In this document: piece by piece, positions 3,511 to 35,894 of the stretch | Numbering within the stretch: the first letter of the stretch is position 1 | How the letters are laid out: each line of letters opens with the position of its first letter | Assembly (NCBI GenBank): GCA_017404665.1 | Contig: JAFRBX010000028.1 | Coordinates: forward strand, 1-36,634 | Source: Ruminococcus sp. | GTDB taxonomy: Bacteria > Bacillota > Clostridia > Oscillospirales > Acutalibacteraceae | Reading direction: 5' to 3' | DNA: 36,634 nt | Translations under genes and position numbers: made by a program | The notes under the pieces: generated by a model | The model's database searches: none | What the model saw: only the letters and a program-made list of their open reading frames with translations | What the model was told of the DNA's origin: nothing

Positions 3511-3640
3511 AGATAAAAGATAATAGTGGATGGCGGGACACCCGCACCCGATTTATAGTTATTATCTCACATATTACAAATCCGAAACGCTTTTGCGTTT
3601 CCCTTCACGGTTCTCTGTTCTCTATTCTCTGTTATCTGTT
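3511..3640 (-). repeat. Heptamer-armed palindromic element, copy 1
   Basis: 130 bp. Arms are 7-bp units (AGATAAA, AGATAAT on one side; TTCTCTG, TTCTCTA, TTCTCTG, TTATCTG on the other). Internal hairpins are AAACGC-tttt-GCGTTT and GCGGG-aca-CCCGC followed by ACCCGA. Its long spacer (TTATCTCACATA) is shared with copy 2. It lies between the terminator at 3641-3675 and the exchanger gene, and its first base completes the TGA that closes the exchanger frame upstream. Confidence 0.85.
3552..3579 (-). promoter_or_regulatory. Promoter-like sequence inside repeat copy 1
   Basis: On the minus strand TTGTAA (3574-3579), a 16-bp spacer and TATAAA (3552-3557) point toward the exchanger gene. A strong terminator lies just upstream of the element, so the exchanger needs a start site in this short interval. 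This is the only candidate I see. Confidence 0.35.
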
Positions 3641-3675
3641 AAAAAAGTCTCTGACATATTTCTATGCCAAAGACT
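3641..3675 (-). terminator. Strong intrinsic terminator after queH
   Basis: The minus-strand stem has 13 bp (3646-3658 with 3663-3675, two G-U pairs) and a GAAA tetraloop, followed by six T residues (3641-3646). It starts 18 bases after the QueH stop codon. Confidence 0.85.
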
Positions 3676-3693
3676 CAAAATACATGATTTCGA

Positions 3694-4332
3694 TCACTCT
3701 TTATCGGACGCTCCCTGTATCGCGCCGCGCCGGGAATAAACACAGCCGCAATAATTTTGCCGATATAGGTCATACTGACGGCTCAGCTCGATCGAGCGCT
3801 TATAGCCCTCCTTTTTCTTAAAATCGGAGCAAAGGTAATTGACGCCTGTGTCCGCGGCGATCCTCTCCCCGATGGTATTGATCACCTCGGCGTTTTTCAG
3901 CGGGCTGATCGTCAGGGTGGTGGCAAAATAATCATAGCCGCCCGACTTGCACAGCGCGGCGGTATAGGAAAGCCGCTGATAAAAGCAGATTGAGCATCGC
4001 GCGCCGCCCTCGGGGTCATTCTCTCTTCCCTTGACCGCTTCAAAAAAATCATCGGGACGGCATTCAACCTCGACGAATCGGATGTATTCGTTCAGCCCCG
4101 CTTCCTCCACATAGCGTTTGAGCTCGCTGAAACGATAGCGGTACTCGCTCTCTTCGGTGATATTGGGGTTGTAGTAAGCGATCGTAATGTCAAAATGACG
4201 GTAGAGATACTCCAGCACATAGCTCGCGCATACGGCGCAGCAGACATGCAGCAGCAGCGAGGGGCGCTTGCCCTCGGCGGCATTGCGCTCGATCAGCGCG
4301 TCCATTTCCTTTTGGTAGTTGCGTTTGTTCAT
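3694..4332 (-). CDS. queH: Epoxyqueuosine reductase QueH
   Basis: The 212-residue protein matches the QueH (former DUF208) family, which reduces epoxyqueuosine to queuosine in tRNA anticodons. It has 'LLHVCCAVC' (Cys31, Cys32, Cys35), 'CSIC' (Cys113, Cys116) and 'YCGC' (Cys195, Cys197). In characterised QueH these cysteine clusters bind an Fe-S cluster and a second metal. The length is typical. The start overlaps the HAD gene stop by four bases (ATGA), indicating translational coupling. It is the last gene before the terminator at 3641-3675. No other queuosine gene is in the window. Confidence 0.9.
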   Translation of the reverse strand: MNKRNYQKEMDALIERNAAEGKRPSLLLHVCCAVCASYVLEYLYRHFDITIAYYNPNITEESEYRYRFSELKRYVEEAGLNEYIRFVEVECRPDDFFEAVKGRENDPEGGARCSICFYQRLSYTAALCKSGGYDYFATTLTISPLKNAEVINTIGERIAADTGVNYLCSDFKKKEGYKRSIELSRQYDLYRQNYCGCVYSRRGAIQGASDKE

Positions 4333-4985
4333 TGATGCCTCTTAATCCAATTATATAATTCTTCTGCGGAATATACAATAACGTCCGCTCCCGCGTTTTG
4401 CAGCTCTTCTGTGCCGCGGAAGCCCCAGCTCACGCCGCAGACCTTAACGCCCGCGTTATGGGCAAAGATCACATCCACGTCGCTGTCGCCGACATACAGC
4501 GTCTCGCTTTTTTTCACTCCGGACAGGGTGATCAGCTTATTGAGCGCCTCCGGGGAAGGCTTACGGGGAAAGTTATCCTGCTGTCCGTGCGCGTAAAAGA
4601 AATGATGGGACGGATAGAGCTTTGCGAGGATCTCGGGGACAAAAGTGTCAGGCTTATTGGATATAACGGCGGTTTTTATTCCGCTGTTACTGAGCTTTTG
4701 CAGGAGCTCGGAGAGACCGCCATAGGCTGCGGTATAATCCCTGCAGTGATCGGCGTAATAGCGCTGAAAGTCCGCTTTCGCCTGCGCCGCGCCCTCGGGG
4801 GAATAGGCGTCAGCCATGGTGACCCTGATCAGGTTATCTACACCGTTGCCGACAAAGCGGCGGTAGTCGTCCACGGGATAGGTCGGTAAGCTCTGCCGGG
4901 ACAGCGCGTCATTCACGGCGTTCGCGAGGTCGGCGAGCGTATCGGCAAGCGTGCCGTCAAGATCAAAAGCGACCAGCTTGATCAT
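4329..4985 (-). CDS. HAD-superfamily phosphatase, phosphoglycolate phosphatase-like
   Basis: The 218-residue protein has all HAD motifs. Motif I is 'DLDGTLADT' with nucleophile Asp8 and Asp10, followed by a helical cap, motif II 'ISNKPD', motif III Lys in 'RKPSPEAL' and motif IV 'VGDSDVDV'. The cap and length fit the Gph/PGPase subfamily, which removes phosphate from small phosphorylated metabolites. The exact substrate cannot be read from sequence. Both ends overlap neighbours by four bases (lipoprotein stop and QueH start), so it is cotranscribed and coupled with them. Confidence 0.85.
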   Translation of the reverse strand: MIKLVAFDLDGTLADTLADLANAVNDALSRQSLPTYPVDDYRRFVGNGVDNLIRVTMADAYSPEGAAQAKADFQRYYADHCRDYTAAYGGLSELLQKLSNSGIKTAVISNKPDTFVPEILAKLYPSHHFFYAHGQQDNFPRKPSPEALNKLITLSGVKKSETLYVGDSDVDVIFAHNAGVKVCGVSWGFRGTEELQNAGADVIVYSAEELYNWIKRHQ

Positions 4986-7123
4986 GCTTCTTCTCCCCCG
5001 CTTTCTTCGGATGCGGGAGCTTCGGGAGTATCAGATGCCTCAGCGGGATCGGCAGGCTCTGCGGGTTCGGATGGCTCAGACGCAATCGTTTCCGAAATAT
5101 CCTCTGCCGCAATTTCATCCGAAACAGGCGCACTTTCCCCGTAGACCCTGCGGCTCATTTCCTCAAGTTCACGGGCGCGGATATCCTGCTTCTGTTCCTC
5201 GATGCTTTGATCACGCATGCGCTGCTCGACATCCCTGTCGATCTCTTCGACATACTTTTTGTTGCGGACAAGCGCGTTCAGCTCAAAAATGCTGAAGGTT
5301 GTCGTCTGCGCCAAAAGCGTTTTCTTCTTCGGCGCCGCTTCTTCCTCGGGCTCTTCTTCCGGCTCGGCGGGTTCTTCATCTGTTTCGTAAACCGCGTCAG
5401 GATTGTTCACCGGATCGACAGCACGGCGCTTCTTGGGCTTGATCAGCTTGATCGCGATAAAGGCAGTCAGCGCCAGCAGCACCGCGCCGCTCGCCAGATA
5501 GATCACAATACTCGATATCACGGGGATGTTGCCGTGATATTGGATCACAGCGCAGCCCTTTTCCACGTTCATGGAGCCGCGGCTGTGGTCGGTGTAGGCA
5601 GTTTCGCTGCCGTCCACCGATACGGAGACGATATTTTCGCCGCCCTCGGAGCTGACGGTATAGGTCATCGGCGCCGAAGCGTTGTCGGCGTTGAGCATAT
5701 AGCCGAGGTTGACGTAGTCGGTCAGCGTGGTTTTGATGCTAAGATCAAATGCGCCCTTGCGGGTCTCATACGCCATGAAGTTGCCGCTGCCGAATACCTT
5801 GACCAGCTGCGAGGTGATTTCCTCTGTCGAGCCCTCAAAGACCACGTGACAGACAAGGCTTTCGTCAGTCTCACTCGTTTCGCTCTCAACGTCCTTTGAC
5901 GCAAAATAGCTCTGTGCGTAGGTGAGGGCATCGCTGTCGCTCTTTTCATACAGAAAATCGGTCGATCGGCGGAAGCGCTGATCACCGAGGCTTTCCAGCG
6001 CAAAGTTGACGCCCGTGATGCTGTACTGGATACCGTCGGGGATGCGCAGCCGTGCGGAACCGTTCTGCAGCTCGACGGTGTAGAGGTCGTCCTTCCATTC
6101 GCCCGCGCTCACCCAGCGGCCGTCCTCAAAGACGGAGCCTTCACCGTAGGTGGTATTCAGCGGCAGCGAATAGGTATAGTTCAGCACGGGGAAGCCGTTG
6201 TCCTCGCCGAGGAAGGAGAAGGTATCGAGGTTTTCTTCAAAGGTCAGACCCTCGGACAGGGGGGTGGATGCGTTATTGACGTCGCCGTAGGAGATCGCGA
6301 TGCTGTCGGTATCCAGCAGCTCTGCAGTCACATCGGTCATCTTCTCCAGATCCAGCTCCTCGTAGATCGCGGTATAAACCATATTGGAGCCCTCCTGCGA
6401 CCAGCCCGCGTAACGCGCGTCGGGGAGGGTGTTGGTCATAAAATACTGTTCGATCGCGTCCTGATCGGCAGAATAGGTCTCGTTGGGGATCGTAAAGGCG
6501 ATCGTGCGGCTATAGCCGCCCTCTTTGTCGTTGGTCGTCTTGACGGAAATCGACCGGATCGCGCTGCCGGTACAGTCGTTGATGCTGACTGCGGAGCCGG
6601 TCTCGTAGGTATCGGAGCCGATGCGGACGGTGTTGGCGTCATACACAAAGCGCATATCCTTGAGCGCATCCGAAGCGGCAGTTTCGCTGATCATCCACGC
6701 AATCAGCTCGCTGACGTCAAAATCCTCGTCCATGCGGGTGCCGTGGGTCAGATAAGTGTTTTTGCGGGAAAGGAATACGGTCGTATCTCTGCCGATCAGT
6801 TCGCCGACGATGGCTTCATATTGCTTTTTATTGCGGAAGCTGAGCTTCAGCTCGAAATAGTAGCCGTCCTCCTCGACGCCGACATATCGGAAATCGGCGC
6901 CGTCGACCTCGGCGGCAGGCGAATCGGCGACAAGCGTATCCTTTACAGCGTCGATATCAGCTGACAGGGGATAAACCGCCGTCACGATGCGGGCTCCGGA
7001 AAAATCCTCGCCGATCGTCATCTGAGAGCGGACGGAGACCGTCGGGCTGTCGCAGCCGGTCAGCAGTACGCCGAGTCCCGCGATGATAGTCAATATCAAA
7101 ATCATCGAAAATAGTTTTTTCAT
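4982..7123 (-). CDS. Large lipoprotein with a C-terminal membrane segment and acidic cytoplasmic tail
   Basis: The 713-residue protein starts with a lipoprotein signal peptide ending in the lipobox LTGC (Cys24). Residues about 25-530 form an extracellular region of beta-rich segments. Two segments, near 60-140 and 400-470, look like one fold used twice; this weakly resembles LppM-type lipoproteins. A 30-residue hydrophobic segment (about 532-561) is followed by a basic KPKKRR stop-transfer, then a 150-residue tail. The tail contains Glu/Pro-rich stretches, a likely coiled coil (about 610-660) and a terminal Ser/Glu/Pro/Ala-rich run. The protein would be anchored by both lipid and membrane helix, with the tail inside the cell. 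The ATG has AGAGGT five bases upstream. I do not recognise a functional family. Confidence 0.8.
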   Translation of the reverse strand: MKKLFSMILILTIIAGLGVLLTGCDSPTVSVRSQMTIGEDFSGARIVTAVYPLSADIDAVKDTLVADSPAAEVDGADFRYVGVEEDGYYFELKLSFRNKKQYEAIVGELIGRDTTVFLSRKNTYLTHGTRMDEDFDVSELIAWMISETAASDALKDMRFVYDANTVRIGSDTYETGSAVSINDCTGSAIRSISVKTTNDKEGGYSRTIAFTIPNETYSADQDAIEQYFMTNTLPDARYAGWSQEGSNMVYTAIYEELDLEKMTDVTAELLDTDSIAISYGDVNNASTPLSEGLTFEENLDTFSFLGEDNGFPVLNYTYSLPLNTTYGEGSVFEDGRWVSAGEWKDDLYTVELQNGSARLRIPDGIQYSITGVNFALESLGDQRFRRSTDFLYEKSDSDALTYAQSYFASKDVESETSETDESLVCHVVFEGSTEEITSQLVKVFGSGNFMAYETRKGAFDLSIKTTLTDYVNLGYMLNADNASAPMTYTVSSEGGENIVSVSVDGSETAYTDHSRGSMNVEKGCAVIQYHGNIPVISSIVIYLASGAVLLALTAFIAIKLIKPKKRRAVDPVNNPDAVYETDEEPAEPEEEPEEEAAPKKKTLLAQTTTFSIFELNALVRNKKYVEEIDRDVEQRMRDQSIEEQKQDIRARELEEMSRRVYGESAPVSDEIAAEDISETIASEPSEPAEPADPAEASDTPEAPASEESGGEEA

Positions 7124-7139
7124 GATTAACCTCTTTTTT

Positions 7140-7288
7140 CAGATAACAGATAATAGATAACAGATAATAGTGAATGGCGGGACACCCGCACCCGATTGAT
7201 AGTTGTTATCTCACATACTAAGGATCTAAAACGCATCGGCGTTTTCCTTCACTATTCACTATTCACTATTATCTATTCACTATTCTCA
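7140..7288 (-). repeat. Heptamer-armed palindromic element, copy 2
   Basis: 149 bp. The low-coordinate arm has CAGATAA, CAGATAA, TAGATAA, CAGATAA, TAGTGAA. The other arm has TTCACTA three times, then TTATCTA, TTCACTA, TTCTCAG. Inner hairpins are GCGGG-aca-CCCGC and AAACGC-atcg-GCGTTT. It fills the gap between the cyclase gene and the lipoprotein gene. The cyclase stop codon TGA (7286-7288) is made from the outermost arm unit. Confidence 0.85.
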
Positions 7289-7882
7289 GTATCCCTTCGG
7301 CTCACGCATCAGCACCGCACGGCAGGGAGACGCCTCGGGTCCGCTCATTTTCAGCGGAAAAGCAGCGATCGTATATTCGCCGTCCTCGACGCCCTCAAGA
7401 TACAGTCCCTCCAGCACCGGAACGCCCGCTCTGGCGAGCTCCAGATGCGGCATCAGCTCGTCAAAGGGAGGCGCGATCGACATCGCGTCGGTGCCGATCA
7501 GCAGCATGCCGCTGTCCGCGATCACGCGCGCTGCCGAAACGCTGAGGAAGGCTTTGCCGGAGCCGTGCAGGATCAAACGCTTGCTGCACAGGGGCAGCAG
7601 ATGCTCCATATCGTCGCCGGTCAGGATGCCGTCGATAGTCACGACCGTGCATTTGCCGCAGAAATGCGACAGGCGCAGCGAGCCGATATCCGCGCCGTCC
7701 TCGTCAAAATGCAGCGGTGCGTCGATATGCGTACCCGTGTGACAGCACAGGCTGACAGCGGACAGATTGTACATCGAATCATCTTTGTCGCCGATCGCTT
7801 TCAGTTGTTTGAGCTGCGGCTTGGGATCGCCGTCATACACCTTGGACGAAAAGACCTCGCGTGAAATATCATACAGCAGCAT
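7286..7882 (-). CDS. Cyclase/kynurenine formamidase-family metal hydrolase
   Basis: The 198-residue protein carries the signature HTGTHIDAPLHF at residues 48-59, the HxGTHxDxPxH metal-binding motif of the cyclase family (PF04199). Members include kynurenine formamidase, isatin hydrolase and polyketide cyclase-like enzymes. The metal ligands His48, His52 and Asp54 are present. The substrate cannot be decided; no tryptophan-degradation gene is nearby. GGGAGGA precedes the ATG by six bases. A promoter with an extended -10 lies upstream. It is the first gene of the group running to queH, though 162 bp containing repeat copy 2 separates it from the lipoprotein gene. Confidence 0.85.
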   Translation of the reverse strand: MLLYDISREVFSSKVYDGDPKPQLKQLKAIGDKDDSMYNLSAVSLCCHTGTHIDAPLHFDEDGADIGSLRLSHFCGKCTVVTIDGILTGDDMEHLLPLCSKRLILHGSGKAFLSVSAARVIADSGMLLIGTDAMSIAPPFDELMPHLELARAGVPVLEGLYLEGVEDGEYTIAAFPLKMSGPEASPCRAVLMREPKGY

Positions 7883-7952
7883 AAGCTATCCTCCCGCTTC
7901 TTCCTCAGTTCTTATTTCTTGAAACACAACATATTACTCCAGATTACACCTT

Positions 7953-7961
7953 ATTATACCA
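7953..7961 (-). promoter_or_regulatory. Extended -10 promoter of the cyclase gene
   Basis: The minus strand reads TGGTATAAT, a perfect extended -10 (TGnTATAAT), about 70 bases upstream of the ATG at 7882. No good -35 is visible, as expected for extended -10 promoters. The site follows the terminators that close the ribosomal operon. Confidence 0.6.
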
Positions 7962-8005
7962 TATATCGTCAAAAAATAAAGTATATTTTGTTAACAATAT
8001 GATCG

Positions 8006-8034
8006 AAAAAGAAAAGCCCCGCCATACGGCGAGA
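8006..8034 (-). terminator. Second intrinsic terminator after rplQ
   Basis: On the minus strand CTCGCC pairs with GGCGGG around a GTAT loop and is followed by GCTTTTCTTTTTC. The 3' half and tail (GGGGCTTTTCTTTTT) repeat those of the first terminator at 8076, so the two look like partial duplicates. Confidence 0.65.
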
Positions 8035-8075
8035 GGCACGCGTGCCTTTTTCTGTCCCGGACTTACCGGCTGCCT

Positions 8076-8110
8076 AAAAAAGAAAAGCCCCGACATGCGT
8101 GTCAGGGCTT
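8076..8110 (-). terminator. Main intrinsic terminator of the ribosomal super-operon
   Basis: An 11-bp stem (8085-8095 with 8100-8110, one G-U pair) with a four-base loop is followed on the minus strand by TTCTTTTTT. It lies about 18 bases after the rplQ stop codon. Confidence 0.85.
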
Positions 8111-8127
8111 CGCAATGACAATTGTGA

Positions 8128-8469
8128 TCAGACAAGCTCGATGATCGCCATCTCGGCAGCGTCGCCGCGACGGGGACCGATCTTGGTGATGCGGGTGTAG
8201 CCGCCGCTGCGGTCGGCGTACTTCGGCGCGATCTCCTTGAACAGCTTGGTCGCTACGTCCTCTTTGGTGACGAACGCCATGACCTGTCTCTTGTTTGCAA
8301 GCGTATCTTTCTTTGCGATCGTGATCATCTTCTCCGCCATGGAAGCGGTCTCCTTAGCGCGGGAAAGAGTGGTTTCGATCTTGCCGTTTTCGAGCAGGAA
8401 GGTAACGAGAGCTCTCAGCATCGCAAGACGCGCGTCGGTAGCTCTGCCCAGCTTTCTGGTACCCGGCAT
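8128..8469 (-). CDS. rplQ: 50S ribosomal protein L17
   Basis: The 113-residue protein has the L17 start [19 protein letters not shown] and the later '[20 protein letters not shown]' region. L17 binds 23S rRNA near the exit tunnel. It is the last gene of the alpha operon, 201 bases downstream of rpoA, and is followed by two terminators. AAGGAGTG precedes the ATG by seven bases. Confidence 0.95.
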
Positions 8470-8670
8470 TGTGTTTCACTCCTTTCGGGATCTTTCTTTA
8501 CAGTTGATCTATAAAGTTAAATAGGTTTGATTCATTTGTCACGCCTCGTTGCTCTGCGCTGATCCTCGTATAACTCCCGCTCGCCCGCCCATCTGCATGA
8601 CCTGCGGTCATTTCGACAGGCACCGGCTCACCGGTCGTTATCCGAGGGCTCCGAGCCTCGGCGCTTCTAT
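8470..8670. other. rpoA-rplQ spacer, structured, no gene
   Basis: This 201-bp gap is long for the operon. It is GC-rich with short inverted repeats (for example CACCGG/CCGGT near 8621-8636 and CCGAGG/CCTCGG near 8641-8660). No heptamer arms are visible and no terminator tail follows, so rplQ can be read through from rpoA. Confidence 0.4.
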
Positions 8671-10774: not shown

Positions 10775-11143
10775 TTACTTCTTCTTGTTAGCCATCGTCT
10801 TGCGCGGGCCTTTACGGGTGCGAGCGTTGGTCTTGGAACGCTGACCCCTTACGGGCAGACCCTTTCTGTGGCGAACACCGCGATAGCTGCCGATTTCGAT
10901 AAGTCTCTTGATGTCGAAAGCGATATCACGGCGGAGATCACCTTCAACGCGGCAATTATGGTCGATATATTCTCTGAGTTTTGATACGTCTTCTTCGGTG
11001 AGATCGCGGACGCGTGTGTCCGGATTGACACCTGTTGCAGCAATAATGTCTGTAGCGGTTTTACGACCGATGCCGTAGATATAAGTGAGTCCGATTTCTA
11101 CTCGCTTGTCACGGGGCAAGTCGACGCCTGCTATACGAGCCAT
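10775..11143 (-). CDS. rpsM: 30S ribosomal protein S13
   Basis: The 122-residue protein begins [20 protein letters not shown] and ends with the basic tail containing '[17 protein letters not shown]', which contacts the P-site tRNA. It is the first gene of the alpha part. It is separated from rpmJ by 229 bases that contain repeat copy 3, which is unusual for these normally adjacent genes. Confidence 0.97.
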
Positions 11144-11205: not shown

Positions 11206-11357
11206 CAGATAACAGATAACAGATAATAGATAACAGATAACAGTGAAGGGAAACGCTTCGCGTTTTGAATTTGTATTACGCTTCATCTTATCATACAAAT
11301 CGGGTGAAGGCGGAGCCCTCCAGCAACTATTATCTATTCTCTTTTCTCTATTCTCTG
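11206..11357 (+). repeat. Heptamer-armed palindromic element, copy 3, inside the ribosomal operon
   Basis: 152 bp between rpsM and rpmJ. The left arm has five CAGATAA-type heptamers then CAGTGAA. The right arm has TTATCTA, TTCTCTT, TTCTCTA, TTCTCTG. The hairpin AAACGC-ttc-GCGTTT comes first and the GC hairpin second (opposite orientation to copies 1, 2, 5, 6). The spacer carries an extra perfect inverted repeat, ATTTGTAT/ATACAAAT. The end lies 15 bases from the rpmJ stop codon. Confidence 0.85.
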
Positions 11358-11372
11358 ATCGCGCAGCGAGCC

Positions 11373-11486
11373 TTAGCCCTGACGCTGCTTATGCTTGGGG
11401 TTTTCGCAGATCACCATGATCTTACCGTGTCTCTTGATGATCTTGCACTTTTCACACATTTTCTTTACTGAAGGTCTGACTTTCAT
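11373..11486 (-). CDS. rpmJ: 50S ribosomal protein L36
   Basis: This 37-residue gene is short but clear. It begins [20 protein letters not shown] and ends NPKHKQRQG. Cys11, Cys14, Cys27 and His32 form the zinc-binding site of the C+ form of L36. It lies between infA and rpsM, its standard place. The ATG is at 11486. Confidence 0.95.
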
Positions 11487-21151: not shown

Positions 21152-21985
21152 TTACTTGCTGTTTCTGCGTCTTACGATGAGCTTATCGGACGCCTTGTTG
21201 GACTTTCTGGTCTTATAACCGAGCGCCGGCTTACCCCACGGGGTAACAGGGCCGGGACGGCCTACGGGGGATTTACCCTCACCGCCGCCGTGCGGGTGGT
21301 CATTCGGGTTCATGACGGAACCGCGGACGGTCGGGCGGATACCCATGTTTCTCTTGCGGCCGGCTTTACCGATCTTGACGTTCTCGTGGTCGATGTTGCC
21401 GACCTGACCGATGGTAGCCATGCAGGTCTCGGGCACGTTTCTGAGCTCGCCGGAGGGCAGTCTCAGGAGGGCGTAGCCGTTCTCCTTAGCCATGAGCTGA
21501 GCCATGTTGCCTGCGGCGCGGGCGAGCTGAGCGCCTCTGCCGGGGTAAAGCTCAACGTTGTGGACGAAGGTACCGGTGGGGATGTTCTTCAGGGGCAGCG
21601 CGTTGCCGGGCTTGATATCCGCGGTCTCGCCTGCTACTACCTTGTAGCCTACCTTCAGACCCTGGGGCGCGATGATGTACGCCTTTTCGCCGTCCTCATA
21701 CTCGACCAGCGCGATGAACGCGGAGCGGTTGGGATCGTACTCGATGGTCTTAACGGTGCCTTCTACGTCAAATTTCTGTCTCTTGAAATCAATAATACGG
21801 TATTTTCTCCTGTTGCCGCCGCCTCTGTGACGAACCGTGATGCGGCCGTAGCTGTTGCGGCCGCTGTGCTTCTTCAGAGGTTCGAGCAAGCTCTTTTCGG
21901 GAGCGACCTTGGAAAGCCCGGAGTAATCCGTAACCGACATGTTGCGTCTAGCGTTGGTTGTCGGCTTATAAACCTTAATAGCCAT
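21152..21985 (-). CDS. rplB: 50S ribosomal protein L2
   Basis: The 277-residue protein has '[20 protein letters not shown]', '[20 protein letters not shown]' and the C-terminal '[20 protein letters not shown]' containing the conserved peptidyl-transferase-region histidine. GAGGAG lies eleven bases before the ATG. The gene is separated from rplW by 206 bases holding a truncated repeat element. Confidence 0.97.
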
Positions 21986-22110: not shown

Positions 22111-22168
22111 TCGGGTGCGGGCAGCGCCCGCCCATAACTGTTATCTGTTATCTGATATCTGTTAACTG
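22111..22168 (+). repeat. Heptamer-armed palindromic element, copy 4 (truncated), inside the ribosomal operon
   Basis: Only the GC hairpin (TCGGGTGCGGGCAGCGCCCGCC in two parts: stem GCGGGC/GCCCGC) and one arm remain. The arm units are TTATCTG, TTATCTG, ATATCTG and TTAACTG. The AAACGC hairpin and the other arm are missing or decayed beyond recognition upstream. It sits in the 206-bp gap between rplW and rplB, 23 bases from the rplW stop codon. Confidence 0.75.
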
Positions 22169-22191
22169 TGAGCGAAGCGAACCCACAGGCT

Positions 22192-22482
22192 TTACATCAT
22201 GCCTTCAAAAAACTCGATCGGTTTGCTGTTGGCAGTTAACTGTACGTAGGCCTTCTTCCAGCTGCGGGTGTAGCCCTCAAAGCGGCCCTGTCTCTTCATA
22301 CGACCGCGGACGTGAACGGTGTTCACCTTTACGACCTTGACCTTGAAGAGCTCTTCTACAGCTCTGGCAACGTCTATCTTGGTAGCGTTCTTTGCTACCT
22401 CAAAGACATACTTCTTGTTGGTGATGTCCTGCATCGACTTCTCAGTGATGATGGGGCGGATGATGATATCTTGAGCAATCAT
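22192..22482 (-). CDS. rplW: 50S ribosomal protein L23
   Basis: The 96-residue protein has '[13 protein letters not shown]' at the start and '[20 protein letters not shown]' in the middle, typical of L23 at the tunnel exit (trigger factor and SRP dock). The ATG overlaps the rplD stop by four bases, with its AGGAGGT site inside rplD. Confidence 0.97.
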
Positions 22483-24285: not shown

Positions 24286-24377
24286 AAGCACAGTGGCGCA
24301 GTTATGACATAGCAACCCCAATGTCACAAAAAGCTCAAACTATTCTTTCGCCCGGTTTAAAATCGGACATACTCCAC

Positions 24378-24401
24378 GGAAAAACCAACGCTTTCGCGTT
24401 G
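24378..24401 (-). terminator. First terminator-like hairpin of the rpsJ leader
   Basis: CAACGC-GAAA-GCGTTG (GNRA loop) on the minus strand is followed by GTTTTTCC. It begins about 40 bases after the predicted transcription start. The short stem suggests a weak terminator or pause site. Confidence 0.5.
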
Positions 24402-24446
24402 CAACCTCCCGCTTCATCGCATATCTTGTGCAGTCACGCAAGGGTT

Positions 24447-24764: not shown

Positions 24765-24820
24765 TCTCAAAACAACCCAAAACAACCAAATGCATACAAA
24801 AGCAAGCGAAACAACCCAAA

Positions 24821-24880
24821 CAGAAACAGAAACAGAAGCAGAGACAGAAACAGAAACAGATACAGATACAGAAACAGATG
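24821..24880. repeat. Hexanucleotide microsatellite (CAGAAA/CAGATA)
   Basis: Ten consecutive 6-bp units. Five read CAGAAA, two CAGATA, and single units CAGAAG, CAGAGA and CAGATG. On the minus strand this gives a TTTCTG/TATCTG pyrimidine-rich array in the 3' region of the purine operon. Frames through it encode only Ser-Val or Cys-Phe runs and are not genes. Confidence 0.9.
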
Positions 24881-24882
24881 CC

Positions 24883-24916
24883 AAAGCGCAGGGCGCTTTT
24901 GTCAGGCAAGCCTGAC
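24883..24916. other. Two adjacent hairpins after purL
   Basis: AAAGCGC-AGG-GCGCTTT (24884-24900 region) is followed directly by the palindrome GTCAGGC-AA-GCCTGAC (24901-24916). They lie 50 bases after the purL stop, between it and the microsatellite, and may stop exonucleases at the 3' end of the mRNA. Confidence 0.45.
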
Positions 24917-29038: not shown

Positions 29039-29047
29039 CCTACACGA

Positions 29048-30313
<1,266 letters not shown>

Positions 30314-30345
30314 GTCATATCTCCTTATCAAAACACTTTTTAGGG

Positions 30346-30470
30346 AGATAACAGATAATAGATAACAGATAACAGTGAAGGGCGGGACACCCGCACCCGA
30401 ATCATATTATCATCTAAAACGCGAAGCGTTTCCCGAAACTGTTATCTGTTCTCTTTTCTCTGTTCTCTGA
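30346..30470 (-). repeat. Heptamer-armed palindromic element, copy 5
   Basis: 125 bp filling the purH-purD gap. Arm units are GAGATAA, CAGATAA, TAGATAA, CAGATAA, CAGTGAA on one side and TTATCTG, TTCTCTT, TTCTCTG, TTCTCTG on the other. Hairpins are GCGGG-aca-CCCGC and AAACGC-gaa-GCGTTT, with a short spacer. It ends one base from the purH stop codon. Confidence 0.85.
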
Positions 30471-30471
30471 T

Positions 30472-31656
30472 TTAATGGTGGAACAATCTCATACCGGTGA
30501 ACGCCATCGCGATGCCGTGCTTGTCGCAGCACTCGATGACCAGATCGTCACGGATGGAGCCGCCGGGCTCGGCGATGTACTTGACGCCGCTCTTGAAGGC
30601 TCTGTCGATGTTGTCGGCAAACGGGAAGAACGCGTCTGAGCCGAGCGATACGCCGTCGATGGTGTCGAGATAGGCGCGCTGCTCCTCGTCGGTGAAGGGA
30701 GCGGGCTGCTCGGTGAAGTACCTCTGCCAGCTGCCGTCGGCGGTGACGTCCTCTTCGTTCTTGTTGATATAGCCGTCGATGACGTTGTCGCGCTCGGGGC
30801 GCTTGAGGTCGTCGCGGAACGGCAGGCTGAGCACCTTGTCGCTCTGACGGAGGAACCATGTATCGGCCTTACTTCCGGCAAGACGGGTGCAGTGGATGCG
30901 GCTCTGCTGACCCGCGCCGACGCCGATCGCCTGACCGTCCACCGCGTAGCAGACGGAATTACTCTGGGTATATTTTAATGTGATCAGCGAGACGATCAGG
31001 TCGCGCACCGCAGACTCGGGGAGCTCCTTGTTCGCGGTGACGACGTTCGTCAGCAGTTCGCGGTTGATTTCAAAATTGTTGCGCCCCTGCTCAAAGGTGA
31101 CGCCGTAGACCTGCTTGTGCTCGACGGGATCGGGCACATAGTCAGGGTCGATCTTGACGATGTTGTAGTTGCCCTTGCGCTTGGACTTGAGGATTTCAAG
31201 AGCCTCGGGCTCGTAACCGGGAGCGATCACGCCGTCGGATACCTCGCGCTTGATCATCAGCGCGGTGGTGACGTCGCAGACGTCGGACAGCGCGACCCAG
31301 TCGCCGAAGGAGCACATGCGGTCGGTGCCGCGGGCACGGGCGTAGGCGCAGGCGAGCGGGCTGTCGTCCAGCCCCTCAATATCGTCGACGAAGCAGGCTT
31401 TCTTGAGCTTGTCGGACAGCGGGATACCGACAGCCGCCGAGGTGGGGCTGACGTGCTTGAACGAGGTGACAGCGGGGAGTCCCAGCGCTTCTTTCAGCTC
31501 CTTGACGAGCTGCCACGAGTTGAAGGCGTCGAGGAAGTTGATGTAGCCCGGTCTGCCGGAAAGGATCTCGATGGGCAGATCGGAACCGTCGTGCATAAAG
31601 ATTTTCGCGGGCTTCTGGTTAGGGTTACAGCCGTATTTTAACTCAAATTCTTTCAT
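30472..31656 (-). CDS. purH: AICAR transformylase, stand-alone (PurH formyltransferase part only)
   Basis: The 394-residue protein corresponds to the AICAR formyltransferase domain of PurH and catalyses AICAR to FAICAR with 10-formyl-THF. The catalytic Lys-His pair is 'SFKHVSPTSAA' (Lys67, His68). 'GVGAGQQSRIHCTRL' and the C-terminal 'AMAFTGMRLFHH' are family marks. The N-terminal IMP cyclohydrolase domain of ordinary bifunctional PurH is absent; that step is probably done by the adjacent PurO-like protein. I place the start at ATG 31656, seven bases after AGGAG; the ATG just before it is only four bases away. Confidence 0.9.
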   Translation of the reverse strand: MKEFELKYGCNPNQKPAKIFMHDGSDLPIEILSGRPGYINFLDAFNSWQLVKELKEALGLPAVTSFKHVSPTSAAVGIPLSDKLKKACFVDDIEGLDDSPLACAYARARGTDRMCSFGDWVALSDVCDVTTALMIKREVSDGVIAPGYEPEALEILKSKRKGNYNIVKIDPDYVPDPVEHKQVYGVTFEQGRNNFEINRELLTNVVTANKELPESAVRDLIVSLITLKYTQSNSVCYAVDGQAIGVGAGQQSRIHCTRLAGSKADTWFLRQSDKVLSLPFRDDLKRPERDNVIDGYINKNEEDVTADGSWQRYFTEQPAPFTDEEQRAYLDTIDGVSLGSDAFFPFADNIDRAFKSGVKYIAEPGGSIRDDLVIECCDKHGIAMAFTGMRLFHH

Positions 31657-31678
31657 CATATAACTCCTTTCATAACAG

Positions 31679-31818
31679 GCCCCCTTTCCTAAGGGGGCTG
31701 CCGCGTCAGCGGCTGGGGGTTGAAGCGCATTATAATAGATAACTCTTTCATGAAGAGATATGGATCTCACGTGACAACCCTCCGGCTCTTCGAGCCACCT
31801 CCCTTAGGAAAGGGAGGC
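31679..31818. repeat. MITE-like element with long imperfect terminal inverted repeats
   Basis: 140 bp between purO and purH. Each end carries CCCTTTCCTAAGGG-type sequence followed by a second small hairpin (GCCGC-GTCA-GCGGC on one side, GGCTC-TTC-GAGCC on the other) and GGGTTG. The ends are about 45-bp imperfect inverted repeats with mutually compensated stems. The interior is A/T-rich. The element stops two bases from the purO stop codon. Confidence 0.75.
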
Positions 31819-31820
31819 TA

Positions 31821-32540
31821 TTACACGTTCTTATTGATCAGACGGTTTTCTTCTTCGCCTGTTTCAAGATCGATGTATCTGACATACAAAGAGATCTTGT
31901 TGTTCTCATCGAGGGCGTTCCACAGCTTGTCGGTGAAAGCGTCGATATCATCGTCGATCTTAACACGCTCGGGCTCGCCTTGGAAGGTCGGGATCGGGTT
32001 GCCGTCGCAGACGTAGGTGTGGATGAAGTGACCCAGTCCCGCCTTGGACGGATAATCAAAGCCATAGCGCGCGCAGTCGCTCCCCTCCGGGTCGATCGAC
32101 TTGAGGATCGACATGCGGTAGGTGAAATCGCCGTCCTCAAAGGTCAGCATGCCGCTGATGCGGGGGGTCAGGTTGGGCGCGTCGGGCTCGAACTCACGCG
32201 CCGCCAGCGCGCGGTTGAAGGTCAGACCCTTCTGCAGGCCCTCATAGACGGTATCGGTCTGGTCGCCGTTGGTGACGATCAGGTTGTTTTCATACTCGCG
32301 GATCGCCGCGTAGATGATCAGCGACGGATCCTCGACCTTGGACGCGTCAAAGGGCTCGGTGAACACCGCGCCGTCGCGCTCAACAAAAACTCTGTTTCTC
32401 GAATTGGCGCTTCTGCCCATGATGAAATAGGCTGCCGCCGCTTTGGTGCCGTCGGGCGTTTTGCCAATGATGATACCTCTGCCCGGATAGGTGTTGCCGT
32501 CGAGCAGCTCTGCGACGTCGTTGATCTTATAGATGTTCAT
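31821..32540 (-). CDS. purO: PurO-type IMP cyclohydrolase
   Basis: The 239-residue protein resembles archaeal-type IMP cyclohydrolase PurO (Ntn-hydrolase-like fold), not the PurH N-terminal domain. It has the N-terminal 'YPGRGIIIGKTPDGTKAAAA', then 'FIMGRSANSRNRVF' and 'NLTPRISGML'. It would close the ring of FAICAR to give IMP. Its place next to the stand-alone AICAR transformylase supports this. I choose the ATG at 32540, six bases after GGGGA; an ATG two codons earlier touches the ribosome binding site. Confidence 0.85.
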   Translation of the reverse strand: MNIYKINDVAELLDGNTYPGRGIIIGKTPDGTKAAAAYFIMGRSANSRNRVFVERDGAVFTEPFDASKVEDPSLIIYAAIREYENNLIVTNGDQTDTVYEGLQKGLTFNRALAAREFEPDAPNLTPRISGMLTFEDGDFTYRMSILKSIDPEGSDCARYGFDYPSKAGLGHFIHTYVCDGNPIPTFQGEPERVKIDDDIDAFTDKLWNALDENNKISLYVRYIDLETGEEENRLINKNV

Positions 32541-32560
32541 ATACATTCCCCTTTATATTT

Positions 32561-32679
32561 AGATAATAGAGAACAGAGAATAGTTGATGGAGGGCTTTGC
32601 CCTCACCCAATACCTATTATCAATCAAAACGCGAAGCGTTTCCCTTCACTATTATCTTTTATCTATTATCTGTTATCTG
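32561..32679 (-). repeat. Heptamer-armed palindromic element, copy 6
   Basis: 119 bp between purN and purO. Arm units are AGATAAT, AGAGAAC, AGAGAAT on one side and TTCACTA, TTATCTT, TTATCTA, TTATCTG, TTATCTG on the other. The GC hairpin has changed to GAGGGC-aaa-GCCCTC (minus strand), with both sides altered together. The other is AAACGC-gaa-GCGTTT. The outermost unit encodes the last Arg codon and the TAA of purN. Confidence 0.85.
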
Positions 32680-33278
32680 GAAATGATTTCATAGGAAATC
32701 ATTTCCACCGCCTGCGGCAGGATGATCCACTCCGCCTGCTCCATCACGCGCCTTTGGAGTATTGCGGGCGTATCGCCGTCGAGTACCTCGACCGCCTTCT
32801 GGGCGATGATCTCTCCCCCGTCGGGGATCTCATTGACGAAGTGCACCGTCGCGCCGGTGACCTTCACGCCTTTTTTGAGAGCCGCTTCATGCACCTTCAA
32901 TCCATAGTAGCCCTGTCCGCAGAAGGACGGGATCAGGGACGGGTGGATGTTGATGATGCGGTGATCGTAACGCGAGGTGAATCGCTCTGACAAAATCGAC
33001 ATGAAGCCCGCGAGGACGATCAGGTCGATCTTGTTCTGATCGAGCGCGTCGATCAAGGCGTTTTCAAACGCTTCCTGCGATTTTAATTCTTTCTTAGAAA
33101 TATACTGCGCTCTGATGCCTGCCTTTTCGGCACGGGTCAAGGCGTAAGCGTTCTGGTTGTTGGAGATCACGAGAACGATCTCGCCGCTATGGATCACGCC
33201 GCTGCTTTCAGCGTCGATCAGGGCTTGAAGATTCGTGCCGCCGCCCGAAACGAGGACGGCTATCCTTGCTTTCAGCAT
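32673..33278 (-). CDS. purN: Phosphoribosylglycinamide formyltransferase
   Basis: The 201-residue enzyme formylates GAR using 10-formyl-THF. It begins with '[18 protein letters not shown]' and has the catalytic Asn and His in '[12 protein letters not shown]' and Asp in 'IPDGGEII'. It overlaps purM by seven bases (ATGCTGA). Its final codon and stop (AGA TAA) lie within the arm of repeat copy 6, so the C-terminus was probably reshaped by that insertion. Confidence 0.96.
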
Positions 33279-34321
33279 AACTCGATTTTCTCCTCGCCCT
33301 GCGCCTTGACGATCTCGCCGATGACGTAGGAGTCCTCGCCCTCGGCTTTGAGGATCGAAAGCGCCTCGTCAGCCTGAGCGGCGGGTACCACGATACTCAT
33401 ACCCACGCCCATGTTGAAGGTGTTGAACATGTCGTGCTCACTGATACCGCCCTTTTCCTGAATGAGTTGGAAGATCGGCAGGATGCGCACATCCTCTTTA
33501 TTAATTCTCGCACATAAGCCATCCGGTATCGAACGCGGGATGTTCTCATAGAAGCCGCCGCCGGTGATGTGGGAGATACCCTTGACCGTGACCCTTTCGA
33601 GCAGGGCTAAAACGGGCTTGACGTAGATCTTGGTCGGGGTGAGCAATGTCTCGCCGACGCTCCTGCCGCCGAGTGCCTCTACAGGCGTTTTGATGTCGGC
33701 GTTCTCGACGTCAAAGACCTTGCGCACCAGCGAGAAGCCGTTAGAATGTACGCCCGAGGACGGCAGGGCGATCACAACGTCGCCTGCTTCCATCGTCTTG
33801 TTGTCGATGATCCTGTCCTTATCGACCACGCCGGTGCTGTAGCCCGCGAGGTCGTACTCGTCCTCGGGATAGAAGCCGGGCATTTCGGCAGTCTCGCCGC
33901 CGATCAATGCGGCACCCGACTGCACACAGCCGTCGGCAACGCCCTTGACGATATCCGCGATACGTTCGGGCACGTTCTTGCCGCAGGCGATATAGTCGAG
34001 GAACAGCAGGGGCTTTGCACCGACGCAGACGATGTCGTTGACGCACATCGCCACACAGTCGATACCGACCGTATCGTGCTTATCCATTAAAAACGCTAAT
34101 TTCAGCTTGGTGCCGACGCCGTCGGTGCCGCTGACCAGTACAGGCTTTTGGATACCCGTCAGGTCAAGCTCAAAGAGCCCGCCGAAGCCGCCCACGTCGG
34201 AGCATACGCCCGCGGTCGCGGTGCGCGCGACGTGCTGTTTCATCAGCTCGACTGCCTTGTAGCCCGCGGTGATATCCACGCCTGCCGCGGCGTAAGCGTC
34301 GGATTTAGAATTGTTGATCAT
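33272..34321 (-). CDS. purM: Phosphoribosylformylglycinamidine cyclo-ligase
   Basis: The 349-residue enzyme makes AIR from FGAM. Marks are '[20 protein letters not shown]', '[14 protein letters not shown]' and '[11 protein letters not shown]'. The ATG at 34321 is supported by AGAGGAG eight bases upstream, which overlaps the purF stop codon. An upstream in-frame start lacks a ribosome binding site. It overlaps purN at its end. Confidence 0.96.
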
Positions 34322-34326
34322 ATTGA

Positions 34327-35751
34327 TTACTCCTCTCCGTCCCAGCAGTAGGTGCACAGCTCGCATTTGGGGAGCCCGATCGCCTCCACGATGCCGTCGA
34401 GGGACTGAAAATCAAGCGAGTCGAATTTCAGCTTCTCGCAAATGGTTTTTCGCAGGTTTTTGCCGCGGACGGTAGAACCGTCGGCGTATTCTTTGATATG
34501 ATTGAAGCCCTCTTCGCCCTCGAGCTCAAGGATGACCCTGCGTGCGATCAGATCCATGTCAGAGGTGTTGCGCGAAAAGTTGAGGAACTTGCAGCCGTAC
34601 ATGATCGGCGGACAGGCGGAGCGCATATGCACGCTCTTTGCGCCGTTTTCATACAGGAATTCGACCGTCTCCCTGAGCTGGGTGCCGCGGACGATGGAGT
34701 CGTCCACAAAGAGCAGATCCTTGTCGGTGATCAGATCGTAGACGGGGATCTGCTTCATCTTGGCGATCTTATTGCGGTCGTTTTGGTTGGTCGGCATGAA
34801 GGAGCGCGACCAGGTGGGCGTGTACTTGATGAACGCGCGGGCAAAATGCCTGCCGCTCTCGTTGGCGTAGCCGATCGCGTGAGGCGTACCCGAATCCGGC
34901 ACGCCGCCGACGTAATCAACGTTGATATCGCCGAGGTTTTCTCTATCATGCTGCGCCATGATCGCGCCGTTGCGGTAGCGCATCACCTCGACGTTCACGC
35001 CCTCGTAGGTCGAGGTCGGATAGCCGTAGTAGCTCCAGAGGAAGGAGCAGATGCGCTTTTTCTTGCCGGGTTTAGAGAGCTGCTTGCGATAGGTGGGGGT
35101 CAGCAGCACGATCTCACCGGGGCCGAGCTCCGGGTCGTCCTCGTAGCCGAGCTTCTGGTAGGCGTAGCTCTCAAAGGAAACGGCATAGCCGTACTCGCTC
35201 CTGCCGATGCAGACGGGCAGGCGTCCGACCTTGTCGCGCGCGGCGATCAGCGAGCCGTCCTCCAAGAGGATCAGGATGTTCTGGGTGCCGTCGATGATGC
35301 TCTGGGCAAACTTGATACCCTCGGCAAAGCTCGATTGTGTATCGATCAGCGCGGCGAGCAGCTCGGTGGTGTTCACCCTGCCGCCGGTCATCGCGTCGAA
35401 GTGACCGTAGCTGTGCTTTAAGTGCTTCTCGATCAGCTCGTCAGCGTTGTTGATGATGCCGACGTTGCAGATCGCGTAGGTGCCCAGATGCGAGCGGATC
35501 AGCATCGGCTGGGGATCGGTGTCGGATATACAGCCGATCGCCGAGGTGCCCTGCATCTCGTCAAAAATATGCTCGAACTTCGTGCGGAAGGGAGCGTTCT
35601 CTATATTATGTATCTTGCGCTGCAGACCGATCTCGGGATCGTAGGCGGCAAGACCGCCGCGCCGCGTGCCGAGATGGGAATGGTAGTCAACGCCGAAAAA
35701 CACATCCATCATACAATCCTCGGTGGATGTGATGCCGAAAAATCCTCCCAT
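34327..35751 (-). CDS. purF: Amidophosphoribosyltransferase family protein lacking the catalytic Cys
   Basis: The 474-residue protein has a PurF-type phosphoribosyltransferase domain. The PRPP loop '[13 protein letters not shown]' is at residues 348-360, with '[14 protein letters not shown]' and '[16 protein letters not shown]'. Cys235, Cys387, Cys463 and Cys466 are placed like the 4Fe-4S ligands of Bacillus PurF. The N-terminus reads MGGFFGI where active enzymes have Cys directly after Met. The glutamine-site region 'GHxRYST' is 'GCISDT' here. So the glutaminase half looks inactive and ammonia may be the nitrogen source. The start is firm: GGAGGT nine bases before the ATG. It lies in the purine operon between purE and purM. 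Confidence 0.9.
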
Positions 35752-35771
35752 AATTCATATACCTCCAAATT

Positions 35772-35894
35772 CAGAGAAAGAGAAAAGAGAATAGATAACA
35801 GTTATGGGAAACGCTTCGCGTTTTTGATCTGTATTAATCGGGTGCGGGCAGCGCCCGCCATTCACTGTTATCTGTTATCTATTATCTGTTATCT
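35772..35894 (+). repeat. Heptamer-armed palindromic element, copy 7
   Basis: 123 bp between purE and purF. Arm units of GAGAAAA, GAGAATA, GATAACA type on one side and TTATCTG, TTATCTA, TTATCTG on the other. The AAACGC-ttc-GCGTTT hairpin precedes TCGGGT and GCGGGC-agc-GCCCGC, so the orientation matches copies 3 and 4. It ends three bases from the purE stop codon. Confidence 0.85.

What the first reader, a model, noticed from the sequence alone, without database searches (positions are those of the whole stretch)
3511..35894. A seven-copy dispersed element with 7-bp repeat arms and two internal hairpins
Seven copies (3511-3640, 7140-7288, 11206-11357, 22111-22168 truncated, 30346-30470, 32561-32679, 35772-35894) share one plan: arm of heptamers, hairpin AAACGC-n-GCGTTT, variable spacer, TCGGGT plus a GC-rich hairpin, arm of complementary heptamers. 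The arms are built from interchangeable 7-bp units (TTATCTG, TTATCTA, TTCTCTG, TTCTCTA, TTCACTA), so opposite arms pair over long stretches. Density is about one per 5 kb. Copies 1, 2, 5, 6 have one orientation and 3, 4, 7 the other. Heptamer-armed modular elements are not a bacterial repeat class I recognise. The nearest analogy I know is the heptanucleotide STRR repeats of cyanobacteria, which lack this architecture.
Basis: seen in the sequence. Interest (0 to 1): 0.85.

Follow-up and report, generated by a model that had tools for sequence, protein, structure and literature searches.

The report
Mobile elements with seven-base repeat arms
A gut-type bacterium's genome is dotted with short hairpin elements whose ends are seven-base repeats, and the same kind of ends flank the genes of a little-understood small protein (S23) in many bacterial groups, which suggests an overlooked class of mobile DNA and a common source for several unexplained seven-base repeats.

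Summary
In detail: six full copies and one half copy, with inward-facing arrays of TTMWCTR heptamers and two swappable hairpin modules. The family is genome-wide (169 three-heptamer hits against 2 for the control pattern).

The likely autonomous partner is not a transposase. The genome's only PF05635 match (S23, "23S rRNA intervening-sequence protein", Avd-like) lies inside a 492-bp element with the same arms and modules. This generalises: of 72 S23 loci from several phyla, 36 have period-7 arrays on both sides and 44 on at least one; 3 of 138 control sides do. Heptamers differ between loci but are inverted-matched within a locus (6.3/7 against 4.0/7 between loci).

Elements turn over at fixed sites. 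Sibling species keep hairpin cores but carry other heptamers. In Microcystis the S23 cassette alternates with other cargo at two sites. Nostoc and Anabaena plasmids show occupied and empty cas1-cas2 sites.

Best reading: non-autonomous members of an S23-associated, heptamer-armed mobile class that also covers at least one 23S IVS and probably cyanobacterial STRR/TAACTGA repeats. The mechanism (S23-assisted annealing at heptamers) is inferred. Ten searches of an open-access library showed no paper making this link.

The parts
3511..3640 (+). Copy 1: left heptamer arm (irregular), GGCGGGacaCCCGCACCCGA module, spacer, AAACGC..GCGTTT hairpin (3585-3600), right heptamer arm (3611-3638). Between the ORFs 2534-3451 and 3694-4332.
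   Evidence: fold z -4.15
7140..7288 (+). Copy 2: left arm 7140-7174, GCGGG and AAACGC (7229-7244) modules, right arm 7248-7282 rich in TTCACTA. The arm adjoins the stop codon of the ORF 7286-7882.
   Evidence: fold z -6.40
11206..11357 (-). Copy 3, inside the ribosomal-protein operon, upstream of the 10775-11143 ORF (read as rpsM) and next to the gene read as rpmJ (names recalled from sequence). Arm 11206-11247, AAACGC hairpin 11251-11265, TCGGGT module, arm 11325-11357.
   Evidence: fold z -4.11; orthologous site compared
22111..22168 (-). Copy 4: half element, TCGGGTGCGGGcagcGCCCGCC module and one heptamer arm only; in the ribosomal-protein operon between ORFs 21152-21985 and 22192-22482.
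30346..30469 (+). Copy 5: both arms, GCGGG and AAACGC (30417-30431) modules; between the ORFs 29048-30331 and 30472-31770 (read as purine-synthesis genes).
   Evidence: fold z -7.64; orthologous sites
32560..32679 (+). Copy 6: both arms, GGAGGGcttt module and AAACGC (32627-32641) module; after the ORF 31821-32546, its right arm overlapping the last 7 bases of the ORF 32673-33278.
   Evidence: fold z -4.50; orthologous sites
35772..35894 (-). Copy 7: both arms, AAACGC hairpin (35809-35823) and TCGGGTGCGGGC module; between the ORFs 34327-35751 and 35898-36386 (read as purine-synthesis genes).
   Evidence: fold z -4.55; orthologous sites

Best explanation
The seven copies are non-autonomous members of a class of mobile element whose full form encodes an S23/IVP four-helix-bundle protein instead of a transposase. 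Shown here: the genome's single S23 match sits in a 492-bp element with the same heptamer arms and hairpin modules; S23 genes in several phyla sit between inverted heptamer arrays in about half of the loci sampled; heptamers differ between loci but match (inverted) within a locus; elements are present, absent or replaced at orthologous sites; S23 cassettes alternate with other cargo between matching arrays. Inferred mechanism: S23 (a homologue of the retroelement helper Avd) binds the heptamer hairpin as single-stranded DNA or RNA and promotes annealing of an element's arms to matching heptamers, or to short host matches. This lets S23 or non-coding cassettes move between arrays and lets arms be rewritten to the resident S23's heptamer. 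In transcripts the paired arms form a long stem. By analogy with 23S rRNA intervening sequences, which RNase III removes, this may make insertion inside operons tolerable.
For: Genome-wide family: 169 hits against 2 control. S23 identity: PF05635 3e-22, TIGR02436 3.4e-26. The genome has one PF05635 match, inside heptamer arms. Period-7 score >=15 of 21 in S23 flanks: 36 of 72 loci both sides and 44 of 72 at least one side (80 of 144 sides), against 3 of the 138 control sides 600-1100 bp away that have sequence; 24 of 31 loci, 30 from relatives plus the own one, both sides; 12 of 19 further loci. Inverted matching within a locus 6.32/7 against 4.03 between loci and 3.71 direct (65 of 111 loci that passed the cut). 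Common heptamer signature NNARTKN, 5.03 bits against 3.94 +/- 0.09 for letter-shuffled heptamers. Heptamer tracks S23 protein relatedness: Mantel r 0.38, 0 of 5000 permutations; in 33 loci under 60% identity r 0.25, 8 of 5000. Same cores with other heptamers at orthologous sites. Site heptamers fit the same genome's S23 heptamers better than shuffled genomes: 5.85 against 5.18, 9 of 10000, own genome left out. Microcystis: S23 cassette at site A in 6 of 12 genomes and at site B in 8 of 12, other cargo or other heptamers elsewhere. Site A copies are 99.4-100% identical though their flanks average 97.0%. Occupied (2) and empty (2) alleles at cas1-cas2 in Nostoc and Anabaena plasmids.
Against: Of the 72 named loci, 28 lack an array on either side and 36 lack one on at least one side by my test; some have other unit lengths or hairpin arrays. 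Some genomes have many arrays without a matching S23 among the loci I read: G023 for TTMWCTR; G012 and G057 for TYAGTGR. Six of 13 orthologous-site heptamers match no S23 of their genome at more than 5 of 7 positions. No transposition was observed, and S23 binding to heptamers is untested. No target-site duplication was apparent at the few junctions read, and in one Nostoc plasmid comparison the element stands in place of about 197 bp of host DNA rather than being a clean insertion. The adenine-mutagenesis signature expected of an Avd/reverse-transcriptase route was not found.
Confidence: 0.62

Rival explanations
1. MITE-like elements: the copies are internally deleted relatives of a classical transposon with terminal inverted repeats, mobilised by a transposase elsewhere; heptamers are just expanded ends.
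For: Inverted arms, short length, intergenic dispersal and patchy distribution (22 of 118 genomes have a TTMWCTR x3 match, from 1 to 169 hits) fit a MITE.
Against: The longest element found in the fetched stretches encodes S23, not a transposase; the other listed elements hold no ORF above 96 codons between their arms (those ORFs were not searched). Arms of one element are not more alike than arms of different elements. At orthologous sites the arms change sequence while cores persist. No fixed end sequence: heptamers differ between loci.
Confidence: 0.1
2. REP/RAYT or IS200/IS605-type hairpin elements: subterminal hairpins processed by a Y1 tyrosine transposase.
For: Two subterminal hairpins; own genome has 2 Y1_Tnp matches, and 11 of 15 genomes have at least one.
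Against: No Y1_Tnp match in 4 of 15 element-bearing genomes (G015, G043, G049, G057; drafts, 78-99% complete). The two hairpin modules face each other in inverted orientation and are swapped freely. The surroundings of the Y1 genes were not examined.
Confidence: 0.05
3. Reverse-transcriptase-based mobility: S23 acts like Avd with a cellular reverse transcriptase (DGR-like or retron-like), and arms are copied from an RNA template.
For: PF05635 resembles Avd (passages of PMC10053308). RVT_1 is present in 12 of 15 genomes, one match in the own genome.
Against: No RVT_1 match in G023, G043 and G049, which carry the elements (95%, 78% and 87% complete drafts). Variation in heptamers is not adenine-centred: on the upstream-arm strand variant rates are A 6.5%, T 10.7%, G 12.6%, C 15.1%.
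Confidence: 0.12
4. No mobility: heptamer arrays arise by slippage and are kept as RNA processing or regulatory stems; S23 genes are passive passengers or relics in them.
For: Heptamer arrays vary in length between close genomes. PMC4679880 cites polymerase slippage for heptanucleotide arrays and proposes translational regulation for TAACTGA repeats (abstract and passages).
Against: Slippage does not explain inverted pairing of two arms, the shared NNARTKN signature, empty sites, or 96-99% identical S23 cassettes at two unrelated Microcystis sites.
Confidence: 0.11

Closest known systems
Intervening sequences (IVS) of 23S rRNA genes encoding S23p/IVP, e.g. that of Coxiella burnetii (PMC4990558, passages read)
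   Same: Same protein family; terminal inverted repeats forming a long stem; that paper reports three tandem heptamers GACAGAT upstream of the S23p start codon and an RNase III cut at the start of the first repeat. The heptamer is one base from the window family's AACAGAT.
   Different: IVSs lie in rRNA genes; the window elements lie between protein genes, are many, mostly lack the gene, and have swappable hairpin modules.
Cyanobacterial STRR heptanucleotide repeats (recalled: Mazel 1990; Vioque 1997, only its reference seen) and trnL-intron P6b heptamer stems (PMC4476775, passages)
   Same: Tandem heptamers, dispersed, including inside structured RNA genes as complementary stems; the cyanobacterial S23 genes read here have such arrays as arms.
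   Different: Described as repeats whose origin is not known; no link to S23 in the passages I read.
TAACTGA direct repeats of Beggiatoaceae, Cyanobacteria and Bacteroidetes (PMC4679880, abstract and passages)
   Same: Same heptamer (TAACTGA/CTGATAA) as an arm of the Microcystis S23 element; found in ribosomal-protein operons, as in the window; the author suggests a repeat-binding protein might be the mobile element.
   Different: Reported mainly as direct repeats upstream of start codons; S23 is not mentioned (0 occurrences).
GGGAATC/GGGGATT heptamers of Xanthomonas and Nostoc (PMC4692102, passages)
   Same: Heptamers, 70 and 75 convergent inverted pairs in two Xanthomonas genomes; Xanthomonas also has an S23 protein of solved structure (2GSC, XCC0516).
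   Different: Read there as quadruplex-forming repeats; GGGAATC does not fit the NNARTKN rule; no Xanthomonas genome was examined here.
Small dispersed repeats (SDR) of Nostoc (recalled: Elhai 2008; not held)
   Same: Small hairpin modules often embedded in tandem heptamers (recalled).
   Different: Recalled only, not tested; no S23 link known to me.

Membership tests
23S rRNA IVS with S23p | Encodes a PF05635/TIGR02436 protein in the full-length form | tested here: met
   Own-genome 492-bp element; the window copies themselves carry no gene
23S rRNA IVS with S23p | Terminal complementary arms forming a stem | tested here: met
23S rRNA IVS with S23p | Located inside an rRNA gene | tested here: not met
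   Window copies lie between protein genes; no rRNA at gathering threshold in the window or in the 20 S23 loci scanned. So filed as related to, not as, IVS
23S rRNA IVS with S23p | Excised by RNase III | not testable with these tools
   Needs RNA experiments
MITE of a DDE or Y1 transposon | Longer relative encoding a transposase with the same ends | tested here: not met
   Among the fetched own-genome stretches only: the longest relative encodes S23 and the others hold no ORF above 96 codons
MITE of a DDE or Y1 transposon | Fixed terminal sequence and target-site duplication | tested here: inconclusive
   Heptamers differ by lineage, so no fixed ends; duplications could not be judged at single-base level in the few diverged junctions read
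REP/BIME with RAYT | Y1 (RAYT) gene in the genome with matching flanking hairpins | tested here: inconclusive
   Y1_Tnp in 11 of 15 element-bearing genomes; flanks of those genes not compared with the modules
Cyanobacterial STRR | Dispersed tandem heptanucleotides | tested here: met
   but that is one feature, and the window genome is not a cyanobacterium
Diversity-generating retroelement (Avd) | Reverse transcriptase with template/variable repeats next to the Avd-like gene, adenine-specific variation | tested here: not met
   No adenine bias; 3 of 15 genomes without an RVT_1 match; the 492-bp own element has no room for an RT. Neighbours of other S23 genes were not scanned for RT

The most novel reading that the evidence does not exclude
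S23/IVP proteins define a multi-phylum class of transposase-free mobile elements with tandem-heptamer inverted arms. Each lineage's S23 specifies, or co-evolves with, its own heptamer within an NNARTKN code. Arms are rewritten to that heptamer while cores persist, and cargo cassettes are exchanged between matching arrays. 23S rRNA IVSs, cyanobacterial STRRs, TAACTGA repeats and trnL P6b stems are all products of this one class.
Probability: 0.5. Interest if true: 0.95.

Novelty: categorically new. Interest (0 to 1): 0.9.

Why it matters
Heptanucleotide arrays have been reported in cyanobacteria, Beggiatoaceae, Xanthomonas and elsewhere; two of the papers I read in part call their origin or spread unknown, and a third reads them as quadruplex repeats. 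S23p of rRNA intervening sequences has no known function. Linking the two gives S23 a testable role, gives the repeats a source, and proposes a way of moving DNA that uses no known transposase. It also offers a reason why such arrays sit inside essential operons and structured RNAs. Each part can be tested at the bench with one small protein and short oligonucleotides.

Tried and rejected
Adenine-specific mutagenesis (DGR-like) as the source of heptamer variants: the own-genome unit TTMWCTR looked suggestive, because each variable position includes A, but 130 arms (two from each of 65 loci) show no adenine excess. Dropped.

Transmission of identical arms at insertion (ordinary TIRs): arms of one element are if anything less alike than arms of different elements.

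Viral vehicles: only 1 S23 relative among 69 pattern stretches in viral contigs (a peptide-pattern scan) and 2 of 50,697 phage records, so phage empty sites could not be used.

23S rRNA context for S23 genes without heptamer arms: 19 of the 30 named loci with no array on either side, plus L148 (array on one side), were scanned; no rRNA, but tRNA genes upstream in six.

Exact target rule: the Microcystis sites have no arm-free allele. The rpsM-rpmJ, purine-operon and cas1-cas2 sites have empty alleles but flanks too diverged for single-base junctions. A short match of host sequence to the arm at cas1-cas2 (TACTTCAC) is noted, not proven.

The period-7 cut-off of 15/21 was chosen, then applied unchanged. 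One search counted 144 control sides, of which 6 had no sequence; the recount is 3 of 138. At that cut-off the best of seven other periods also passes on 22 of 144 S23 flank sides, against 80 for period 7. The 65 loci are those that passed the cut; 46 of 111 were left out. In one search the shuffled null used 15 restarts against 60 for the real set, which favours the real set a little. In one search the reversed control pattern also hits (9 in G005, 11 in G038, 1-3 in five others, 2 in the own genome), so small counts there mean little; it hits 1 in G043 and 2 in G097. Heptamers were read by eye; arrays of G036 (rpsM-rpmJ and copy 7 sites) and G023 (copy 5 and 6 sites) were left out as degenerate or one-armed, and not all S23 genes of each genome had been read. 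Draft genomes may miss genes.
Full report
Observation. I read all seven places in the window. Copies 1, 2, 5 and 6 read left arm, GCGGG-type module (GAGGGC type in copy 6), spacer, AAACGC..GCGTTT module, right arm; copies 3 and 7 read the other way, and copy 4 is a half element in that second orientation. The arms are inward-facing runs of TTMWCTR heptamers. Three heptamers in a row occur 169 times in the 2.47-Mb draft genome, against 2 for the pattern read backwards. A single-copy query finds 100 matching segments. The six fuller copies fold with z-scores of -4.1 to -7.6. Rfam has no match for them at gathering thresholds; the only window match is an S10-Clostridia leader.

Anatomy in the genome. 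In the window plus 44 fetched stretches I list 58 arm groups, 50 with both arms detected. Inner modules are interchangeable: GCGGG/CCCGC, AAACGC/GCGTTT, AAGCC/GGCTT, AATCC/GGATT, GAGGGC/GCCCTC and CTCGC/GCTCG types all occur next to the same arms, and several elements hold a third interior hairpin around GTGCACGTT (by eye). Of 500 heptamer units, the commonest are TTATCTG 147, TTATCTA 100, TTCTCTG 50, TTCTCTA 39 and TTCACTG 39.

The gene-bearing element. The longest element, in G000:C5 (L070:1573-2064, 492 bp), has the same arms and modules and an intact 119-residue ORF. Pfam calls it 23S_rRNA_IVP (3e-22) and NCBIfam calls it TIGR02436 four helix bundle protein (3.4e-26). It is the only PF05635 match in the genome. 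The other listed elements hold no ORF above 96 codons between their arms; those ORFs were not searched. By sequence the S23 alignment matches two solved structures, 2RLD and 2GSC. Passages of PMC10053308 note that PF05635 resembles Avd, the helper of diversity-generating retroelements.

The link is general. PF05635 occurs in 72 of 118 genomes searched (own genome included; 70 over the family cut-off). In 31 loci (30 fetched from relatives plus the own one), 24 have period-7 arrays on both sides of the gene; of 56 control windows with sequence, one (L123 upstream) does. In a named sample of 80 loci from one genome-contig scan, 72 have full flanks. Of these, 36 have arrays on both sides and 44 on at least one at score 15 of 21, against 3 of 138 control sides; the best of seven other periods reaches that score on 22 of 144 flank sides. 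Loci with an array on at least one side include Bacillota, Bacteroidota, Cyanobacteria, Verrucomicrobiota, Fusobacteriota and Ignavibacteria, going by the record titles. Four Nostoc and Planktothrix plasmid loci, 4 of the 21 plasmid records with a match, were read by eye and all four have heptamer arrays. In 19 further loci, 12 have arrays on both sides. Loci without arms occur in each of these three scored sets: 30 of the 80 named loci have no array on either side.

Heptamer rules. Among the 65 of 111 loci that passed the cut, upstream and reverse-complemented downstream heptamers match at 6.32 of 7 positions, against 4.03 between loci and 3.71 without reversal. After choosing the best rotation, heptamers of 33 loci under 60% protein identity share NNARTKN (A 98%, A/G 99%, T 86%, G/T 94%; 5.03 bits against 3.94 +/- 0.09 for letter-shuffled heptamers). 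The published Coxiella IVS heptamer GACAGAT fits the looser form NNARWKN, as does the window family (and inspection). The cyanobacterial array AATCCCC (L222) does not fit. Heptamer likeness rises with S23 protein identity: Mantel r 0.38, 0 of 5000; in the set below 60% identity r 0.25, 8 of 5000.

Turnover at fixed sites. At the rpsM-rpmJ site (copy 3) the own genome and G049 have TTATCTG arms, G017 and G012 have TCAGTGG arms, G062 GATTGAT, G023 CTTCACT, G054 TTCATTA on one side with the TCGGGTG module, G036 only a short stretch, and G033 is empty with a 33-bp spacer (nine of the 50 relatives with a match were read). At the copy 7 site G062 keeps the same two modules in the same order as the own genome but with GTGAGGA arms; G012 has the two modules the other way round with GGTGAAC arms; G049 and G017 have CAGAGAA arms with one module changed; G036 has a degenerate array; G023 and G054 have no heptamer element. 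At the copy 5 site G049 has GTGAATG arms, G023 a one-sided array, G054 a clean empty allele, and G017, G036 and G062 other sequence. At the copy 6 site G012 has ACTGAAA arms, G062 CTCCTCA arms, G054 none. GTGAGGA is the heptamer of an S23 gene in G062 (L135). Over 13 site arrays outside the own genome, site heptamers fit the same genome's S23 heptamers better than shuffled genomes (5.85 against 5.18, 9 of 10000), though six of the 13 score 5 or less.

Genome-wide arrays and S23. TYAGTGR arrays occur in all 7 of the 118 genomes in which I read an S23 gene with such arms (G015, G017, G033, G043, G045, G060, G096) and in 10 of the other 111. In G045 the hits are the element's own arms, and in G060 they may be, so 5 of 7 are clearly beyond that. 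Not every S23 locus of the 118 was read. Against the link, G012 (136 hits) and G057 (99) have no matching S23 among the loci I read, and G023 has 74 TTMWCTR hits without one.

Movement. In 12 Microcystis genomes, site A holds the S23 cassette in 6. The others hold different cargo within the same arms (4), heptamers only (1) or another heptamer (1). Site B holds it in 8; G122, G124 and G127 hold a small element with other heptamers plus a remnant of the first array, and G118 is rearranged. Site A copies are 99.4-100% identical while their flanks average 97.0% (95.5-97.8%). Site B copies are 95.2-100% identical with a right-flank average of 96.7%. A and B copies fall on two sides of a small unrooted tree (support 0.93). 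This suggests that the cassette reached A after the site's lineages had split; recombination between strains could also even out the A copies. In Nostoc and Anabaena plasmids the S23 element sits between cas2 and cas1 in two records, while two others have the genes abutting. On a second Nostoc plasmid family an S23 element with AATTCGT arms stands where five related plasmid loci have other sequence, 197 bp in the closest.

Mechanism. Shown: arms, modules, S23 linkage, turnover, cassette alternation. Inferred: S23 recognises the heptamer hairpin and promotes annealing between arrays or to short host matches; paired arms in RNA make insertions in operons tolerable. A reverse-transcriptase route is weakened by the lack of an RVT_1 match in 3 of 15 draft genomes and the lack of adenine bias. 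A Y1 route is weakened by its absence in 4 of 15. Neither is excluded.

Literature. Ten searches of the open-access library were used. No listed paper states a general link of S23/IVP with heptamer arms, as far as titles, listed abstracts and the passages I read show. The nearest is PMC4990558, which reports heptamers in the Coxiella IVS (passages). PMC4679880 finds no evident mechanism for the spread of TAACTGA repeats (abstract and passages). PMC4476775 says the origins of the trnL repeat classes are not known (passages). PMC4692102 reports inverted GGGAATC pairs in Xanthomonas (passages). PMC11270868 reports IVP genes in insertions of CPR rRNA genes and has no match for 'heptamer' (passages). 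The library omits most subscription papers and preprints, so an earlier report elsewhere is possible.

Verdict. The finding is real and larger than stated. I rate the class as categorically new because, in the literature I could search, no described element combines tandem-heptamer inverted arms of lineage-specific sequence, swappable hairpin cores and an S23 gene in place of a transposase. Its separate pieces have been described before.

Noticed in passing
window 24348-24425 (minus): S10-Clostridia ribosomal-protein leader above Rfam's gathering score; suggests the genome is a Clostridia relative.
   Followed up: no
L156, L170, L173, L175, L185, L207: S23 genes without heptamer arms, mostly from Clostridia-type records, lie about 260-910 bases downstream of tRNA genes (20 loci scanned); possibly a second lifestyle of the family.
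   Followed up: partly
L127 and L138 around S23; similar in L184: Instead of heptamers, arrays of AGCTAAAT-like units separated by small hairpins flank the S23 gene: a different style of arm.
   Followed up: no
L164, L188, L213: S23 flanks where another period (4-6 or 8-11) scores higher than 7: the unit length may vary by lineage.
   Followed up: no
G000 C13, C28, C39, C43, C53, C64, C72, C73: The own genome also has 10 TYAGTGR array hits, a second heptamer family without a matching S23 gene in it.
   Followed up: no
window 11358-11376 and 22169-22186: A small GCGAGC..GCGAGC-like palindrome abuts copies 3 and 4, and similar ones stand beside the element at the rpsM-rpmJ site in several sibling species.
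   Followed up: no
Viral contigs and phage collections: S23 relatives look very rare in viruses: 1 locus in the viral contigs pattern scan, 2 of 50,697 phage records.
   Followed up: partly
window 24813-24887: Run of AACAGA-type 6/12-base tandem repeats overlapped by mechanical ORFs on the minus strand (family D11); unrelated period.
   Followed up: no
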